This document shows positions 39,223-46,698 of a stretch of DNA of 64,000 nucleotides, in pieces. Source of the stretch: Litoreibacter albidus (GTDB lineage: Bacteria > Pseudomonadota > Alphaproteobacteria > Rhodobacterales > Rhodobacteraceae); the NCBI RefSeq assembly GCF_900107015.1, contig NZ_FNOI01000004.1, forward strand, positions 124,001 through 188,000, given 5' to 3'. Every line of letters starts with the position of its first letter. Position 1 is the stretch's first letter. The translations under genes were made by a program, and so were the position numbers. Below the pieces are notes generated by a model. The model was not told where the DNA came from. It was given only the letters and a program-made list of their open reading frames with translations, and ran no database searches.

Positions 39223-39252
39223 GGATGAAGCGGAGAGACCGCTGCTTCATCC
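39223..39252 (-). terminator. Hairpin overlapping the stop of the TPR-sulfotransferase
   Basis: GGATGAA and GCGG pair with CCGC and TTCATCC around a 5-base loop, with a 3-base bulge. The TGA stop of the minus-strand gene lies in the stem. No T-run follows, so it may protect the mRNA end more than terminate transcription. Confidence 0.35.
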
Positions 39253-40905
39253 ATCCTCGACACTGCCGTACTGCTTCAAGAACGGCTGCATGTCGCGTTC
39301 AAACCGCTTCCACGCACCGACGGACGACGAATACATAGGTTGACGCACCTGCGTGGCCGACAGCGTTCTCACCTCCCGCTTGGTCTCGTAGAACGATAAA
39401 CACGTGTCTTCCCACTCCAGCCCTGCCGCCGCGACAAGCGCTTTGGATTGTCCTTCGGGGTCTGCAATCAGGTCTTCGTAGCGTATTTCGTGGAACCTGT
39501 TCGGGCACCTGTCTCGCCAGAAATCCACCATGTCTTCAAACTGGCGCAGGAAAATTGCAATGTGATCCAGCCGGTTGGCATAGCGGTGCAGCCCCGCCTT
39601 GAACTGGTTCTTGTAAATAGACAACGCATTGTCGCGCGGATCACGGCGAACCACTACAAAGCGGGCGTTCGGCATAAGTTTCGCCAAAAACCCCAAGGTC
39701 GCGTAGCTGGAGATCGACTTGTCCGTGACATGCGGCACGTCGGGGAACAACCGCGCCAAATCCGCCTCAAACTCCCTCACGGCCTCCGCGCATTTCGCCC
39801 AAAACATCTCGCCACCGCCACTTTGCCCCGTGATCAGATCTGCGATTTTCGGCTGGATAAGCCCCATCTCCCCGCCACCCTCGACGCGCGAATGGGAGGC
39901 CAGAATTTGCTCCACCAGTGTGGTGCCGGAGCGCGGCGCGCCCGTAACGAAGATAGGCGCAGCCGTGCTGGTTGGGACAGCCATGTCACCAAACTCGTCG
40001 AACAACTTCCGCGTCCGCTCCGCAATCGCCTCCACCGCCGCCGCGTCATAAGGATAGGCTTTCGCCAAAGCATGATTGGCTTGATCAAGGTAGCCGAACA
40101 CCTTGGAGTGCTGGCCACTGTCCTCCATCGCTTTCGCCAATGCATAGGCCAAGTTCGGCAGGTCTTCGTCGCCCGCGCGCCGCATTTTCAACGCGGCTTT
40201 CATCTTAGGAATATTCGGGTCGTCCGCTGCCATTTTCGTCAATGACGCATAGGACGCGTAGTGCCAGCCAGCCTTGGGCGACAGATCTATTGCCTTTTGC
40301 AACGTCGCCCGCGCCTCGTCCAGCTCTCCCATAGACTGCAACAAACTAGATTTGCGCGACAGCAGCAGCGCATTCGTCGGGGCTAGCGCCAAGCCGTTCT
40401 CGATCTGCTCGCGCGCCAGCGCGTACTGCTTCAACTCGACCAATGCCGCGCTGTATTCCGCGAAAACTTGAGGTTGGCGAAATCCACCCGAAAGCGCCGC
40501 CTTAAACAGCTGCGCTGCCTTCTCCCACGACTTGGCGCGAAGCTGTGCAAGCCCCTCGTAAAACGCAAAGGCGGGGGTTTGCTTCAACACTGGGCTGGCG
40601 CGTTTACGCAGCAACTCGAAATTCTGCGGGTTGGGGTGTTTGCTCGCCATATCCAGATAGCTGATCCAGATCGCGGGCTCATTGGGGCGCAGCTTCAACG
40701 CGGCCTCAAAGCCCGATGCAGCTTGCGCGACTTTGCCAAGCAGCACGGACACTTCGGCAAGGTTGAAGTGCACCTCTGCCAAGTTGGGCGCGCCTTTCAG
40801 CAGCTTTTTGTACCCGCGCTCCGCGTCGCCCAAACGACCCGACAGCTGCGCTTGGCGGGCCTTGGCGAATTGATCCTTGATTTGCTGTTTACCTAATGTC
40901 GCCAT
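39247..40905 (-). CDS. TPR-repeat sulfotransferase family protein
   Basis: A 552-residue protein. Residues 1-280 are tetratricopeptide repeats (for example NLAEVHFNLAEVSVLLGKVAQAASGFEAALKL, key pattern A-L-P). Residues 310-545 form a sulfotransferase domain with the PAPS 5'-phosphate loop IFVTGAPRSGTTLVEQIL near residue 320 and the 3'-phosphate region RFVVVRRDPRDNALSIYKNQF near 420. It should transfer sulfate from PAPS, perhaps to a polysaccharide or protein bound through the repeats. No secretion signal is present, so the active site is cytosolic. A PAPS synthetase is encoded 5 kb away. Confidence 0.88.
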   Translation of the reverse strand: MATLGKQQIKDQFAKARQAQLSGRLGDAERGYKKLLKGAPNLAEVHFNLAEVSVLLGKVAQAASGFEAALKLRPNEPAIWISYLDMASKHPNPQNFELLRKRASPVLKQTPAFAFYEGLAQLRAKSWEKAAQLFKAALSGGFRQPQVFAEYSAALVELKQYALAREQIENGLALAPTNALLLSRKSSLLQSMGELDEARATLQKAIDLSPKAGWHYASYASLTKMAADDPNIPKMKAALKMRRAGDEDLPNLAYALAKAMEDSGQHSKVFGYLDQANHALAKAYPYDAAAVEAIAERTRKLFDEFGDMAVPTSTAAPIFVTGAPRSGTTLVEQILASHSRVEGGGEMGLIQPKIADLITGQSGGGEMFWAKCAEAVREFEADLARLFPDVPHVTDKSISSYATLGFLAKLMPNARFVVVRRDPRDNALSIYKNQFKAGLHRYANRLDHIAIFLRQFEDMVDFWRDRCPNRFHEIRYEDLIADPEGQSKALVAAAGLEWEDTCLSFYETKREVRTLSATQVRQPMYSSSVGAWKRFERDMQPFLKQYGSVEDG

Positions 40906-40960
40906 GGACTTGCACCCTACCCCTGCTTCTGAAGCAGCACGCTATCATTGGCGCTATGAG

Positions 40961-41698
40961 TTATCCAGTCTCCGACAGCAGCATCAGCGCAGCGGAGCTT
41001 TGACTGCGACGCCAGACGGGTTGCGGCGCGGTTTGCGCATGGTGCGCACCTGACAAGCTTGGCATAGAAAAGCGGCGCGCCAGTGGCTTGACGCTGGGGG
41101 CCACGGTGCGCGCGGGCAGATCACGAAAATTATGCGCGAATACTCGCTCGCCGAGGAAGCTATACACAGCACCCAGCACGCGCTCCGGATCACTCAGCAA
41201 TCGCTCGTAGTCGAGCAGCAACAAGCGGTCGGCGGCGGCGCTACCGAGCAAGTCTTGCACCTGCCCCATTGGCGCACCGATTAAGCCGTCTTTTGACATG
41301 AGCGACGCAGGGGAACGTGCGTCGCCAGTCTCCTCCGCGATCTCGGCAGCGATGCGTGCGGGGTCGCGCACCATGACAACAAAGCGCGACAACGGGAACA
41401 AGGTGCTCAGCCGACGCATATGTCCGAGCCACTTCGGGTTGTTGTCGATCACCACGGCATCTAGTGGACGCGCGTGGTGAACCGCATCCAGCGACCCACG
41501 CAACAGCGCCGCACGGGTATCACCATCTAAGTCTGACAGGGGCGAATCAGGCGCCTCGCGACCAGCGTCCAGAAGCCCGAACACCTGTTCTGCCGCACTG
41601 TCGCTCGACACGGAAAACCGCGGGTTTTGCGCCAGCAGCCCCGCAAAGTGACGCGCCCCCGCCGTAGGAAAGCCCGCCACAAAGTGGTAGCGGGTCAT
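40961..41698 (-). CDS. Sulfotransferase-fold protein with degenerate PAPS loop
   Basis: A 245-residue protein with the sulfotransferase outline: YHFVAGFPTAGARHFAGLLAQNPRF at the N-terminus, VIDNNPKWLGHMRRLSTLFPLSRFVVMVRDPARIAAEI near residue 95-125 (key R-V-R-P), and LLLLDYERLLSDPERVLGAVYSFLGE near 170. The normal PRSGTT/S loop is replaced by FPTAGARHF, losing the usual Arg and Ser/Thr, so PAPS binding is doubtful. Alternative in-frame starts lie at 41743 and 41884; I chose the ATG directly before the conserved YHF segment, with AAAGG 8 bases upstream. Confidence 0.7.
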   Translation of the reverse strand: MTRYHFVAGFPTAGARHFAGLLAQNPRFSVSSDSAAEQVFGLLDAGREAPDSPLSDLDGDTRAALLRGSLDAVHHARPLDAVVIDNNPKWLGHMRRLSTLFPLSRFVVMVRDPARIAAEIAEETGDARSPASLMSKDGLIGAPMGQVQDLLGSAAADRLLLLDYERLLSDPERVLGAVYSFLGERVFAHNFRDLPARTVAPSVKPLARRFSMPSLSGAHHAQTAPQPVWRRSQSSAALMLLSETG

Positions 41699-42020
41699 GG
41701 AGACGACCTTTAGCACCTGATCGTTGCTCTTTAACTGCACCATTCGCCTCTTTGTATGGGTGTTCCAAGTGTGACAGACCGATTCGTGGCTGTCCATCGC
41801 GCTCTGCATCACGCGCGGCTTACGATTTCCATCGTATTGAGCGCTCGGTAGAAACGGTGGGAAAGCTGCGCAGCGATTGTTCACGTAAGGCAGCTCACTG
41901 ACGCCAAATATTTGACTTTACCCCTTCAAACAGCGCATTGTGGGGCTCTTATAAACAAGCAGTTCTGCGCGCCGGTGGGGACCGACGCAGTCACGCTACG
42001 ACCTGAAAAAGGGACGACGC
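41699..42020. other. Divergent intergenic region before the sulfotransferase-like and Hint genes
   Basis: This 322-base gap may partly encode a longer N-terminus of the sulfotransferase-like gene (starts at 41743 or 41884). Nearer the Hint gene it holds a TTGACT -35-like hexamer (41912-41917) without a good -10 at the right spacing, and a TATAAA (41950-41955) without a good -35. I see no RNA gene or repeat in it. Confidence 0.4.
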
Positions 42021-44512: not shown

Positions 44513-44590
44513 GTGTTGCCGAATTGTAGCGCTGCATGTCAGGTTGCTTTCCCCGCAACTCCCCCCTTGTTTTTGGCGCAGAGTCTGCGA

Positions 44591-44610
44591 TGTGTTCATG
44601 CGTGAACACA
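44591..44610. promoter_or_regulatory. Operator-like palindrome before the MarR-PAPS synthetase gene
   Basis: TGTGTTCATGCGTGAACACA is a perfect 8-bp inverted repeat with a 4-base centre, ending 12 bases before the start codon. A second perfect repeat, CGCAGA-G-TCTGCG (44577-44589), lies directly beside it. Position and shape fit an autoregulatory operator for a MarR-type dimer. Confidence 0.5.
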
Positions 44611-44622
44611 CTTTGAGTCGAC

Positions 44623-46698
44623 GTGATGACCCTACTGAGTAAACCCGCACTGGACGACGAAGACCTGCTCTTCCGACTTCTGCGCCAGCTTGATCTGGCG
44701 CCGGGCGCGTCCCAGCGGGCGACAGCCACAGCGCTAAAGGTGTCGCTCGGGCGGCTCAACTCGCTGCTGCGCGCGGCAGCGGACGCGGGGCTAATCACCG
44801 TGGACCAACGCGCTGGCCCCGACAAACGCCAACGCTTCGCCTATGCCCTAACCACCCGCGGGGCCGCGAAGAAAAACCAACTGATCAGTGCTTTCCTCAA
44901 ACGAAAGCTTTCCGAATACCACGCCCTTCACGCCGAGTTAACCGGCACCAAATCAAGCATTTCCCCCTTAAGCGACAGGACTAGACTTATGAATAATTAC
45001 CTAACACCCATTCCAGAACTCTACGTGTCGTACGACAGCGCCCAGAAGATGAAGACCGAAGCGGCGAACCTAACCTCGTGGGATCTGACGCCGCGCCAGA
45101 TCTGCGATCTGGAGCTTTTGATGAACGGCGGCTTCAACCCGCTTAAAGGGTTCTTGTCCGAAGAAGACTACAACGGCGTCGTCGAAAACATGCGTTTGTC
45201 CACAGGCGAACTCTGGCCAATGCCGATCACTCTAGATGTGGGCGACGACTTCGCGCAGTCCGTTGAGGTCGGTCAAGACATCGCCCTGCGCGACCAAGAA
45301 GGCGTGATCCTTGCGATGATGTCGGTCACGGACAAATGGGAACCTAACAAAGCCAATGAGGCGGAGAAGGTCTTTGGCGCGGATGACAGCGCCCACCCAG
45401 CAGTGAACTACCTGCACAACCAAGCAGGCAAAATCTACCTCGGCGGCCCCATTACCGGCATCCAGCAGCCCGTGCATTATGACTTCCGCGCCCGCCGCGA
45501 TACCCCGAACGAAATGCGCGCATACTTCCGCAAAATGGGGTGGCGCAAAGTTGTGGCCTTCCAAACGCGCAACCCGCTGCACCGCGCCCACCAAGAGTTG
45601 ACGTTCCGCGCCGCGAAAGAGGCGCAAGCCAACCTGCTGATCCACCCTGTCGTTGGCCTGACCAAACCCGGTGACATTGACCACTTCACCCGCGTCCGCT
45701 GCTACGAAGCGGTGCTGGATCAATACCCATCCTCTACAACGTCCATGAGCCTTTTGAACCTTGCCATGCGTATGGCTGGCCCACGTGAGGCTGTCTGGCA
45801 CGGGCTGATCCGCAAAAACCACGGCTGCACCCACTTCATCGTTGGCCGCGACCACGCAGGCCCCGGCAAAAACTCTGCAGGCGAAGACTTCTACGGCCCC
45901 TACGACGCACAAGACCTGTTCCGCGAGCATCAGGAAGAAATGGGCATCGAAATGGTCGACTTTAAGCACATGGTCTATGTGCAGGAGCGCGCCCAATACG
46001 AGCCAGCCGATGAAATCGAGGACCGCGAGAACGTCACGATTCTGAACATCTCAGGCACTGAATTGCGCCGCCGCTTGGCCGAAGGCTTGGAAATCCCGGA
46101 GTGGTTCTCCTTCCCTCAGGTGGTTAGCGAGTTGCGCAAGTCCCGCCCACCTCGCGCCAGCCAAGGCTTCACCGTGTTCTTCACCGGCTTCTCCGGCTCC
46201 GGCAAATCCACGATCGCCAACGCGCTCATGGTCAAGCTGATGGAAATGGGCGGACGTCCGGTGACACTTCTGGACGGCGACATCGTTCGTAAAAACCTCA
46301 GCTCGGAGCTGGGCTTCTCGAAAGAGCACCGCGACCTGAACATCCGCCGCATCGGCTATGTCGCGTCCGAGATCACCAAGAACGGCGGCATCGCAATCTG
46401 CGCGCCTATCGCCCCCTACGCCACGACCCGCCGCGCGGTGCGCGAAGATGTCGAAGCCTTTGGTGCCTTCATCGAAGTGCACGTCGCGACCTCCATCGAG
46501 GAATGCGAGCGCCGTGACCGCAAGGGCCTCTACAAGCTGGCCCGCGAAGGCAAGATCAAGGAATTCACAGGCATTTCAGACCCCTACGACGTGCCAGAGA
46601 ACCCCGAACTGTCGGTCGAGACCGAAAATGTGGAAGTCGACAACTGCGCCCATCAGGTGATCCTGAAGCTGGAATCGATGGGCCTGATCAAAGGTTAA
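44623..46698 (+). CDS. MarR (EPS-associated type) domain fused in frame to ATP sulfurylase/APS kinase
   Basis: A 691-residue frame in three parts. Residues 1-110 form a winged helix of the MarR EPS-associated kind: DLLFRLLRQL, ASQRATATALKVSLGRLNSLLRAA, FAYALTTRGAAKKNQLISAFLKRKLSEY (key: SLG-LN, FLKRK-EY). Residues 123-510 are ATP sulfurylase (PIPELYVSYDSAQ at its usual N-terminus, QTRNPLHRAH near 314, GRDHAGPGKN). Residues 515-691 are APS kinase with P-loop FTGFSGSGKST. Together the enzyme parts make PAPS from sulfate. No stop separates the regulator from the enzyme; the enzyme alone would start at ATG 44989. GTG 44623 or ATG 44626 begins the frame. True fusion, read-through of a lost stop, or a base error are all possible. 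Confidence 0.85.
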   Translation: MMTLLSKPALDDEDLLFRLLRQLDLAPGASQRATATALKVSLGRLNSLLRAAADAGLITVDQRAGPDKRQRFAYALTTRGAAKKNQLISAFLKRKLSEYHALHAELTGTKSSISPLSDRTRLMNNYLTPIPELYVSYDSAQKMKTEAANLTSWDLTPRQICDLELLMNGGFNPLKGFLSEEDYNGVVENMRLSTGELWPMPITLDVGDDFAQSVEVGQDIALRDQEGVILAMMSVTDKWEPNKANEAEKVFGADDSAHPAVNYLHNQAGKIYLGGPITGIQQPVHYDFRARRDTPNEMRAYFRKMGWRKVVAFQTRNPLHRAHQELTFRAAKEAQANLLIHPVVGLTKPGDIDHFTRVRCYEAVLDQYPSSTTSMSLLNLAMRMAGPREAVWHGLIRKNHGCTHFIVGRDHAGPGKNSAGEDFYGPYDAQDLFREHQEEMGIEMVDFKHMVYVQERAQYEPADEIEDRENVTILNISGTELRRRLAEGLEIPEWFSFPQVVSELRKSRPPRASQGFTVFFTGFSGSGKSTIANALMVKLMEMGGRPVTLLDGDIVRKNLSSELGFSKEHRDLNIRRIGYVASEITKNGGIAICAPIAPYATTRRAVREDVEAFGAFIEVHVATSIEECERRDRKGLYKLAREGKIKEFTGISDPYDVPENPELSVETENVEVDNCAHQVILKLESMGLIKG
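44963..44991 (+). other. Five-C tract and internal ATG at the regulator/enzyme junction
   Basis: The junction reads through CCCCC (44963-44967). With four C the next codon would be TAA; with six C a TAG would follow five codons later, just before ATG 44989. Either change would end the regulator and leave the sulfurylase with its ordinary start. No strong ribosome site precedes this ATG (AGGA is 10 bases away). Confidence 0.6.

What the first reader, a model, noticed from the sequence alone, without database searches (positions are those of the whole stretch)
44623..46698. MarR-type EPS regulator domain fused in frame to a PAPS synthetase
A winged-helix domain of the EPS-associated MarR kind (residues 1-110) continues without a stop into a complete ATP sulfurylase/APS kinase. 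A DNA-binding domain on the enzyme that makes PAPS would be an unusual form of control, for example an enzyme that represses its own gene until substrate or product binds. The inference is mine. The alternative is two ordinary genes merged by a lost stop.
Basis: partly seen in the sequence, partly recalled or inferred. Interest (0 to 1): 0.72.

Follow-up and report, generated by a model that had tools for sequence, protein, structure and literature searches.

The report
Sulfate-activating enzyme with built-in repressor
In many marine Roseobacter-type bacteria the enzyme that activates sulfate carries a DNA-binding domain at its front end, and the gene has that domain's likely binding site at its own promoter plus a conserved second start codon, so one gene probably makes both a self-controlling enzyme and a plain one.

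Summary
Window 44623-46698 (+) is one open frame: a MarR_EPS-like winged helix (residues 12-112), then a complete ATP sulfurylase/APS kinase from residue 123. It is an old, selected design, not a lost stop: wherever a recognisable winged helix precedes the enzyme (109 distinct genes) the two share one frame, and the linker evolves like coding DNA. Two new facts suggest a mechanism. (1) A palindrome, GTTCA-N4-TGAAC, lies just before the long start codon in 107 of 109 distinct fused genes; of the other two, one is cut by a contig end and one has near-matches. It is absent in all 74 distinct unfused genes compared. The same palindrome precedes 15 of 38 distinct stand-alone MarR_EPS genes, so it is probably the domain's operator. 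(2) Inside the fused frame the enzyme keeps its own start: a rare AGG Arg codon lies exactly 12 nt before ATG/GTG in 109 of 109. One gene probably makes a repressor-enzyme and a plain enzyme. DNA binding, the two products and the sensed ligand (APS or PAPS) are untested. It works like BirA, PutA or NadR, with a new enzyme and a dual start. Nine completed paper searches listed nothing on it.

The parts
44566..44569 (+). CTTG, -35-like element of the promoter
   Evidence: A CTTT/CTTG-type element sits 28-29 bp before the operator in 74 of 107 aligned upstream regions (consensus); the sigma-70 consensus scan found no site
44591..44610 (+). Operator candidate: perfect palindrome TGTGTTCA-TGCG-TGAACACA; conserved core GTTCA-N4-TGAAC at 44594-44607
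   Evidence: core present in 107 of 109 distinct fused genes, 0 of 74 distinct unfused; only two copies of the core in the own genome
44612..44617 (+). TTTGAG, conserved weak Shine-Dalgarno-like box of the long form
   Evidence: consensus AcActTTGAGtCg after the operator
44623..44988 (+). Winged-helix (MarR_EPS-like) domain plus linker, residues 1-122; start GTG 44623 or ATG 44626; linker from about residue 108
   Evidence: AlphaFold2 model of residues 1-122 mean pLDDT 82.9, MarR proteins lead the PDB matches
44977..44980 (+). AGGA, internal Shine-Dalgarno, encoded by the rare Arg codon AGG
   Evidence: AGG in 109 of 109 distinct fused genes at exactly 12 nt before the internal start; AGG is 57 of 5456 other Arg codons
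44989..44991 (+). Internal start codon ATG of the enzyme-only form (MNNYL...)
   Evidence: ATG in 104 and GTG in 5 of 109
44989..46698 (+). ATP sulfurylase / APS kinase (PAPS synthetase)
   Evidence: NF004040 1041.7 bits; nearest solved structures P. chrysogenum ATP sulfurylase 1i2d and A. aeolicus 2gks among the top three; RNPLHRAH, GRDHAGPG and GxSGSGKST invariant in 39 fused proteins

Best explanation
The gene encodes a self-regulating PAPS synthetase, a 'trigger enzyme', with two products. The long product (about 691 aa) has an N-terminal MarR-type winged helix that dimerises through its long C-terminal helix and binds the palindrome TGTGTTCA-N4-TGAACACA. That palindrome lies between the promoter-like elements and the long start codon, so binding blocks transcription of its own gene. 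The enzyme part hangs on a flexible linker and reports the state of sulfate activation: occupancy by APS, PAPS or nucleotide would change the DNA affinity. The short product (about 569 aa, the plain enzyme) starts at the internal AGGA-N8-ATG and supplies activity without repression, perhaps forming mixed oligomers. Shown by sequence: the fusion, its conservation, the coding linker, the association of palindrome and domain, and the invariant internal start site. Inferred: DNA binding, repression rather than activation, the two proteins in the cell, and ligand sensing.
For: Fusion: every enzyme locus with a recognisable winged helix within 1600 nt upstream has it in the enzyme's own frame (131 rows, 109 distinct genes); none has it separate. 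Linker differences per codon position 1/2/3 are 0.20/0.067/0.36, with 456 synonymous to 156 non-synonymous single changes over 183 close pairs. Operator: 107 of 109 fused have GTTCAN4TGAAC; L076 (= L140) is cut at a contig end and L141 has two one-mismatch sites (the last read by eye). 0 of 74 distinct unfused genes have it in the 800 nt before the NGGF motif, about 650 nt before the start. Core bases are fixed while the spacer varies. In 671 kb around 67 fused genes, all 68 sites lie at the gene start and none elsewhere. On the enzyme tree, well-supported independent pairs that differ in fusion differ in operator the same way (6 of 6 in most of 200 pairings, 5 of 6 with one tie in the rest; median sign-test p 0.031). 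The operator follows the domain: 15 of 38 distinct stand-alone MarR_EPS loci have it within 500 bp. A second near-copy lies upstream in 23 of 107, 18 of them at 32-33 bp, about three helical turns. Internal start: AGG-N9-ATG/GTG in 109 of 109, AGGA in 108, against AGG as 1.0% of other Arg codons and AGG within 18 nt in only 19 of 74 unfused genes. Fold: the domain model has a helix at 78-107, and MarR proteins lead its PDB matches.
Against: No binding, expression or proteome data. The operator could serve activation instead of repression. The own genome has a second stand-alone MarR_EPS gene (L002/L241) whose protein might bind the site instead, although no such palindrome lies within 500 bp upstream of that gene. 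No ligand pocket was identified, and the full-length model is poor (pLDDT 62). The window's domain scores below the TIGR04176 cut-off (79.6 against 88). 23 of 38 distinct stand-alone MarR_EPS loci lack the exact palindrome, as do 23 of 23 longer class-level relatives. Fusion is labile on the enzyme tree (34 changes by parsimony, at least 6 forced), so it is not essential for the enzyme. The fold matches are modest (best E 2e-4, TM about 0.5-0.6).
Confidence: 0.77

Rival explanations
1. Autoregulated fusion without metabolite sensing: the winged helix simply keeps the enzyme level constant (negative autoregulation), and the enzyme part only helps to form the dimer.
For: All operator and fusion evidence fits equally. 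No ligand site was found. The low-confidence linker (residues 108-135) could mean weak coupling.
Against: A stand-alone repressor would do the same job; tethering it to the enzyme in 109 distinct genes suggests that enzyme state matters. The internal start would already provide enzyme free of the repressor domain.
Confidence: 0.35
2. Another regulator, for example the stand-alone MarR_EPS paralogue or an unknown factor, binds the palindrome, and the fused winged helix does something else, such as oligomerisation or coupling to exopolysaccharide genes.
For: The own genome holds a second MarR_EPS gene beside a polysaccharide-synthesis gene and a NusG-like gene. The palindrome also precedes stand-alone MarR_EPS genes elsewhere.
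Against: The palindrome is absent in all 74 distinct unfused genes compared although some of those genomes have stand-alone MarR_EPS (for example G032, G035, G065). The window genome has only two copies of the core, this one and one inside a frame. Several residues of the putative recognition helix (S41, L42, G43, N46) and wing (D67, R69, R71) are invariant in 39 fused proteins (the assignment to helix and wing is mine).
Confidence: 0.1
3. Two ordinary genes merged by a lost stop; the real product is only the enzyme from MNNYL.
For: The internal AGGA-N8-ATG is nearly invariant. In L166 (G225) the winged-helix part has decayed with the operator gone, while the enzyme frame runs on.
Against: The winged-helix part and the linker are under purifying selection. 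No split form was seen in the loci compared.
Confidence: 0.03
4. The invariant AGG is a translational pause site that lets the winged helix fold, not a ribosome-binding site, so only the long product is made.
For: AGG is rare (57 of 5456 other Arg codons) and lies in the linker.
Against: The spacing to the start codon is fixed in 109 of 109, also where the linker is one codon shorter (L098). The next base is A in 108 of 109. The Met is replaced only by GTG (5 of 5), while GTG is 41% of Val codons in these genes.
Confidence: 0.1

Closest known systems
BirA (group II biotin protein ligase)
   Same: N-terminal DNA-binding domain on an enzyme, controlling genes of its own pathway (start of the abstract of PMC4016012, seen in the listing; that the domain is a winged helix and the product an adenylate is recalled)
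   Different: Different enzyme. BirA controls biotin genes (same abstract); here the only convincing site is the enzyme's own promoter. No internal start of this kind is known to me for BirA.
PutA and NadR trigger enzymes of E. coli
   Same: A metabolic enzyme with a DNA-binding domain that controls genes of its own pathway (recalled; seen only as search terms)
   Different: PutA uses a ribbon-helix-helix and NadR a different HTH (recalled). Neither is a PAPS synthetase nor has a MarR domain.
MarR_EPS regulators (TIGR04176)
   Same: Homologous N-terminal domain (1.5e-22); same palindrome upstream of 15 of 38 distinct stand-alone loci
   Different: The others are stand-alone proteins in frames of about 117-217 aa; the two neighbourhoods checked lie at polysaccharide or ABC-2 export genes. 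The fused form is in a sulfate-activation gene. Window score is below the curated cut-off.
Bifunctional ATP sulfurylase/APS kinase (NF004040; A. aeolicus 2gks) and fungal ATP sulfurylase (1i2d, 1m8p)
   Same: Complete two-domain enzyme with conserved catalytic motifs
   Different: The 35 PDB sequences listed are described as sulfurylases or kinases without mention of a DNA-binding part, and the 74 distinct unfused relatives have no recognisable winged helix. The fungal enzyme's allosteric inhibition by PAPS is recalled, and only hints at how sensing could work here.

Membership tests
MarR_EPS (TIGR04176) | Score above the curated cut-off of 88 bits | tested here: not met
   Window 79.6 bits. 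18 of 52 fused proteins of the family draw do pass, one of them only with neighbouring matches counted, so the domain straddles the cut-off.
MarR_EPS (TIGR04176) | Gene lies with exopolysaccharide genes | tested here: not met
   Nearest neighbours are a thioredoxin-reductase-like gene (Pyr_redox_2), an Lrp/AsnC-type regulator, two sulfotransferases and a PhzC/PhzF-like gene
MarR superfamily fold | Winged helix with long dimerisation helices | tested here: met
   Model H-H-H-E-E plus helix 78-107; MarR proteins lead the PDB matches, best E 2e-4. Dimerisation itself was not tested.
Bifunctional PAPS synthetase (NF004040) | Score above the 669-bit cut-off | tested here: met
   1041.7 bits, residues 121-690
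Bifunctional PAPS synthetase (NF004040) | Enzyme activity | not testable with these tools
   Catalytic motifs intact
Trigger enzymes (BirA/PutA/NadR-like autoregulators) | DNA-binding domain fused to a metabolic enzyme | tested here: met
Trigger enzymes (BirA/PutA/NadR-like autoregulators) | Binds DNA at a gene of its own pathway | tested here: inconclusive
   Operator association 107 of 109 against 0 of 74 is strong but indirect; no binding assay
Trigger enzymes (BirA/PutA/NadR-like autoregulators) | Substrate or product binding controls DNA binding | not testable with these tools
   None

The most novel reading that the evidence does not exclude
A dual-start gene makes both a metabolite-sensing repressor-enzyme and a repressor-free enzyme of PAPS synthesis. 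The ratio and mixed oligomers of the two set a feedback loop in which APS or PAPS bound in the enzyme directly tunes its own promoter, at the branch point between cysteine synthesis and sulfation.
Probability: 0.4. Interest if true: 0.85.

Novelty: new variant of a known kind. Interest (0 to 1): 0.74.

Why it matters
It would be the first PAPS synthetase known to me that carries its own transcription control. It gives a candidate binding motif for the MarR_EPS domain, which I did not find described. It shows an enzyme and an autoregulator kept in one frame with a conserved second start, so that evolution can drop the regulator and leave the enzyme working. It makes the control of sulfate activation in common marine bacteria directly testable with one gene and one 20-bp site.

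Tried and rejected
Lost-stop merger: rejected. Sequencing or assembly artefact: rejected, since many independent assemblies agree. Single-clade curiosity: rejected; fused and unfused genes are interspersed on the enzyme tree (quick method, many weak branches), so the number of gains and losses is unsettled. Regulon search in the own genome: only two exact palindrome cores, the second (C8:4687, L130) inside a 271-aa frame, so no further target is claimed. The reversed control pattern has three hits in that genome, so genome-wide counts alone carry no weight. The family-wide pattern search listed only part of the places, so I used it for genome counts and not as an operator census. Sigma-70 consensus scan: no promoter found. 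Full-length structure: too weak for domain geometry, and its fold search only re-finds sulfurylases and APS kinases in the 50 rows shown. A first count of the internal start with a loose pattern gave AGG at -12 in 98 of 107 and missed two loci, because it chose other Met or Val codons. The refined count gave 109 of 109. The 'other Arg codon' figure comes from the loose count and may hold a few of the true sites, which makes it conservative.

Counts and dropped rows: 'fused' was defined as enzyme and winged helix in one open frame, so 'no stop inside' is true by construction. The independent facts are that no locus had the winged helix upstream in another frame, and that 66 of 67 loci found by the winged helix alone run into the enzyme. 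Of 220 loci held, 206 had the enzyme's N-terminal motif. L196 (an enzyme locus) was not recognised by my pattern and was dropped; 13 others (stand-alone regulators, contig-cut ones and L130) hold no such motif. Distinct genes were defined by the 170 bases at the junction: 131 fused rows gave 109, 75 unfused rows gave 74. The fused set is enriched by seeding with the first 122 residues; prevalence is given only by the even draw of 248 genomes. Unfused genes are those among the 30 loci and the stretches I chose from the listed matches, not a random draw. Stand-alone MarR_EPS: a first pass read 35 of 65 loci, 14 with the palindrome. A profile then scored all 65, 17 with it. Taking out one fused gene (L263), 23 longer class-level proteins (0 with it) and three repeats leaves 15 of 38.

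Full report
What is there. The frame at 44623-46698 (+) encodes 691 residues without a stop. Residues 12-112 match MarR_EPS (TIGR04176) at 1.5e-22, below the model's cut-off. Residues 121-690 match the bifunctional ATP sulfurylase/APS kinase family far above its cut-off. The nearest solved structures include the Penicillium chrysogenum ATP sulfurylase (1i2d) and the Aquifex aeolicus bifunctional enzyme (2gks). Nearby are a thioredoxin-reductase-like gene upstream, an Lrp/AsnC-type regulator, two sulfotransferases at 39247-41884 and a PhzC/PhzF-like gene downstream on the other strand.

How widespread. Of 121 relatives searched with the first 122 residues, 35 match at E 0.001 or better. In 20 of these the winged helix runs into the enzyme, two of them cut by contig ends inside it. 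In one more (G019) the contig ends before the enzyme. Within the genus 12 of 21 genomes show the fusion, and G019 cannot be judged. In an even draw of 248 genomes of the family, 52 carry the fusion, counted the same way from two searches. In an even draw of 289 genomes of the class, only G000 and G277, both of this family, have the domain in a frame long enough for the enzyme; the longest other frame is 490 aa. Of 67 named loci, 66 run into the enzyme and one ends at a contig end.

The fusion is selected. I compared 109 distinct fused and 74 distinct unfused genes. Fused means one open frame by definition; the test is that no enzyme locus had a recognisable winged helix upstream in a separate frame. 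In 183 close pairs the ten linker codons differ mostly at third positions (0.36 per codon against 0.20 and 0.067), and single changes are 456 synonymous to 156 non-synonymous. In the other two frames 25 and 28 of 105 linkers hold a stop. The linker is therefore translated as part of one protein.

The operator. A perfect palindrome, TGTGTTCA-TGCG-TGAACACA, ends 12 bases before the GTG start codon. Its core GTTCAN4TGAAC is found in 107 of 109 distinct fused genes. One of the other two is cut by the contig end with half a site visible, and the other has two one-mismatch sites. None of the 74 distinct unfused genes has it in the 800 bases before the enzyme's NGGF motif, about 650 bases before its start. 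The core bases are fixed while the four spacer bases vary. In 671 kb around 67 fused genes all 68 sites are at this place. In 23 of 107 a second near-copy lies upstream, in 18 of them at 32-33 bp. On the enzyme tree fusion changes often (34 changes, at least 6 forced), and in well-supported independent comparisons the operator goes the same way (6 of 6 in most pairings).

The operator belongs to the domain. Among 38 distinct stand-alone MarR_EPS loci, 15 carry the same palindrome within 500 bases upstream. None of 23 longer class-level relatives does. By the genome-wide density, far less than one would be expected by chance (my estimate, about 0.02). One of them, L025, lies directly before an ABC-2 permease gene, and that genome (G068) has only this one copy. 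This ties the DNA motif to the winged helix rather than to sulfur genes.

The second start. Before the enzyme's first Met every one of the 109 fused genes has the codon AGG exactly 12 nt upstream of ATG (104) or GTG (5), and no other in-frame AGG in the 20 codons searched. It is followed by A in 108 of 109. AGG is 57 of 5456 other Arg codons in these genes. L098, whose linker is one codon shorter, keeps the spacing. Most unfused genes lack an AGG in the last 18 nt (55 of 74). The simplest reading is an internal ribosome-binding site kept under selection, so that one mRNA gives a long and a short enzyme. L166 shows the other side: the winged-helix part is decayed and the operator is gone, but the enzyme frame remains.

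How it probably works. The AlphaFold model of residues 1-122 is a winged helix with a long helix at 78-107, and MarR proteins lead its PDB matches at modest scores. Residues 108-135 have low confidence in the full-length model, as a flexible linker would. The palindrome lies just downstream of conserved promoter-like bases, where a bound dimer would block transcription. That the enzyme's ligands tune the binding is inference. The best APS/PAPS reductase candidate of the genome has the cysteine pattern CC...CxxC, which by recalled knowledge marks APS rather than PAPS reduction, although it scores below the TIGR02055 cut-off. The sulfurylase half would then feed cysteine synthesis while the kinase half feeds sulfotransferases (four PF00685 matches over the cut-off in the genome). 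A self-sensing enzyme at that branch would make sense.

What is known. Nine completed paper searches gave listings only; I opened no paper. None listed a PAPS synthetase fused to a DNA-binding domain or a binding site for TIGR04176. The library is open-access only, so absence is weak. The kind, an enzyme that represses its own genes, is known from BirA, PutA and NadR. The enzyme, the domain, the operator and the dual start are new in this combination as far as I could see.

Noticed in passing
window 39247-40905 (-) and 40961-41884 (-): A TPR-sulfotransferase and a second sulfotransferase-like gene lie about 3-4 kb before the PAPS synthetase; they may be users of its PAPS.
   Followed up: partly
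L025, L027, L228, L230, L236, L238-L240, L243-L245, L252, L254-L256 (upstream of the MarR_EPS frame): Fifteen distinct stand-alone MarR_EPS genes with the palindrome GTTCAN4TGAAC within 500 bp upstream: a likely operator of this regulator family.
   Followed up: partly
L029 1453-2109, L030 1477-2082 and many class-level matches: Proteins of about 200-240 aa with a MarR_EPS-like N-terminus and a C-terminal part of about 100 aa; the two scanned have no Pfam match over cut-off for that part. Another fusion of the same domain.
   Followed up: no
L166 (G225:C81): A PAPS synthetase whose winged-helix part has decayed and whose operator is gone, with the enzyme frame running on: a natural loss of the regulator.
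   Followed up: partly
L002/L241 (own genome C3): The genome's second MarR_EPS gene lies between a polysaccharide-synthesis gene (Polysacc_synt_2) and a NusG-like gene and lacks the palindrome within 500 bp upstream.
   Followed up: partly
L060 and L090: Records titled Nocardioides marinus and Maritalea mobilis carry roseobacter-type fused genes and branch with roseobacters in the enzyme tree, so the titles are probably wrong.
   Followed up: no
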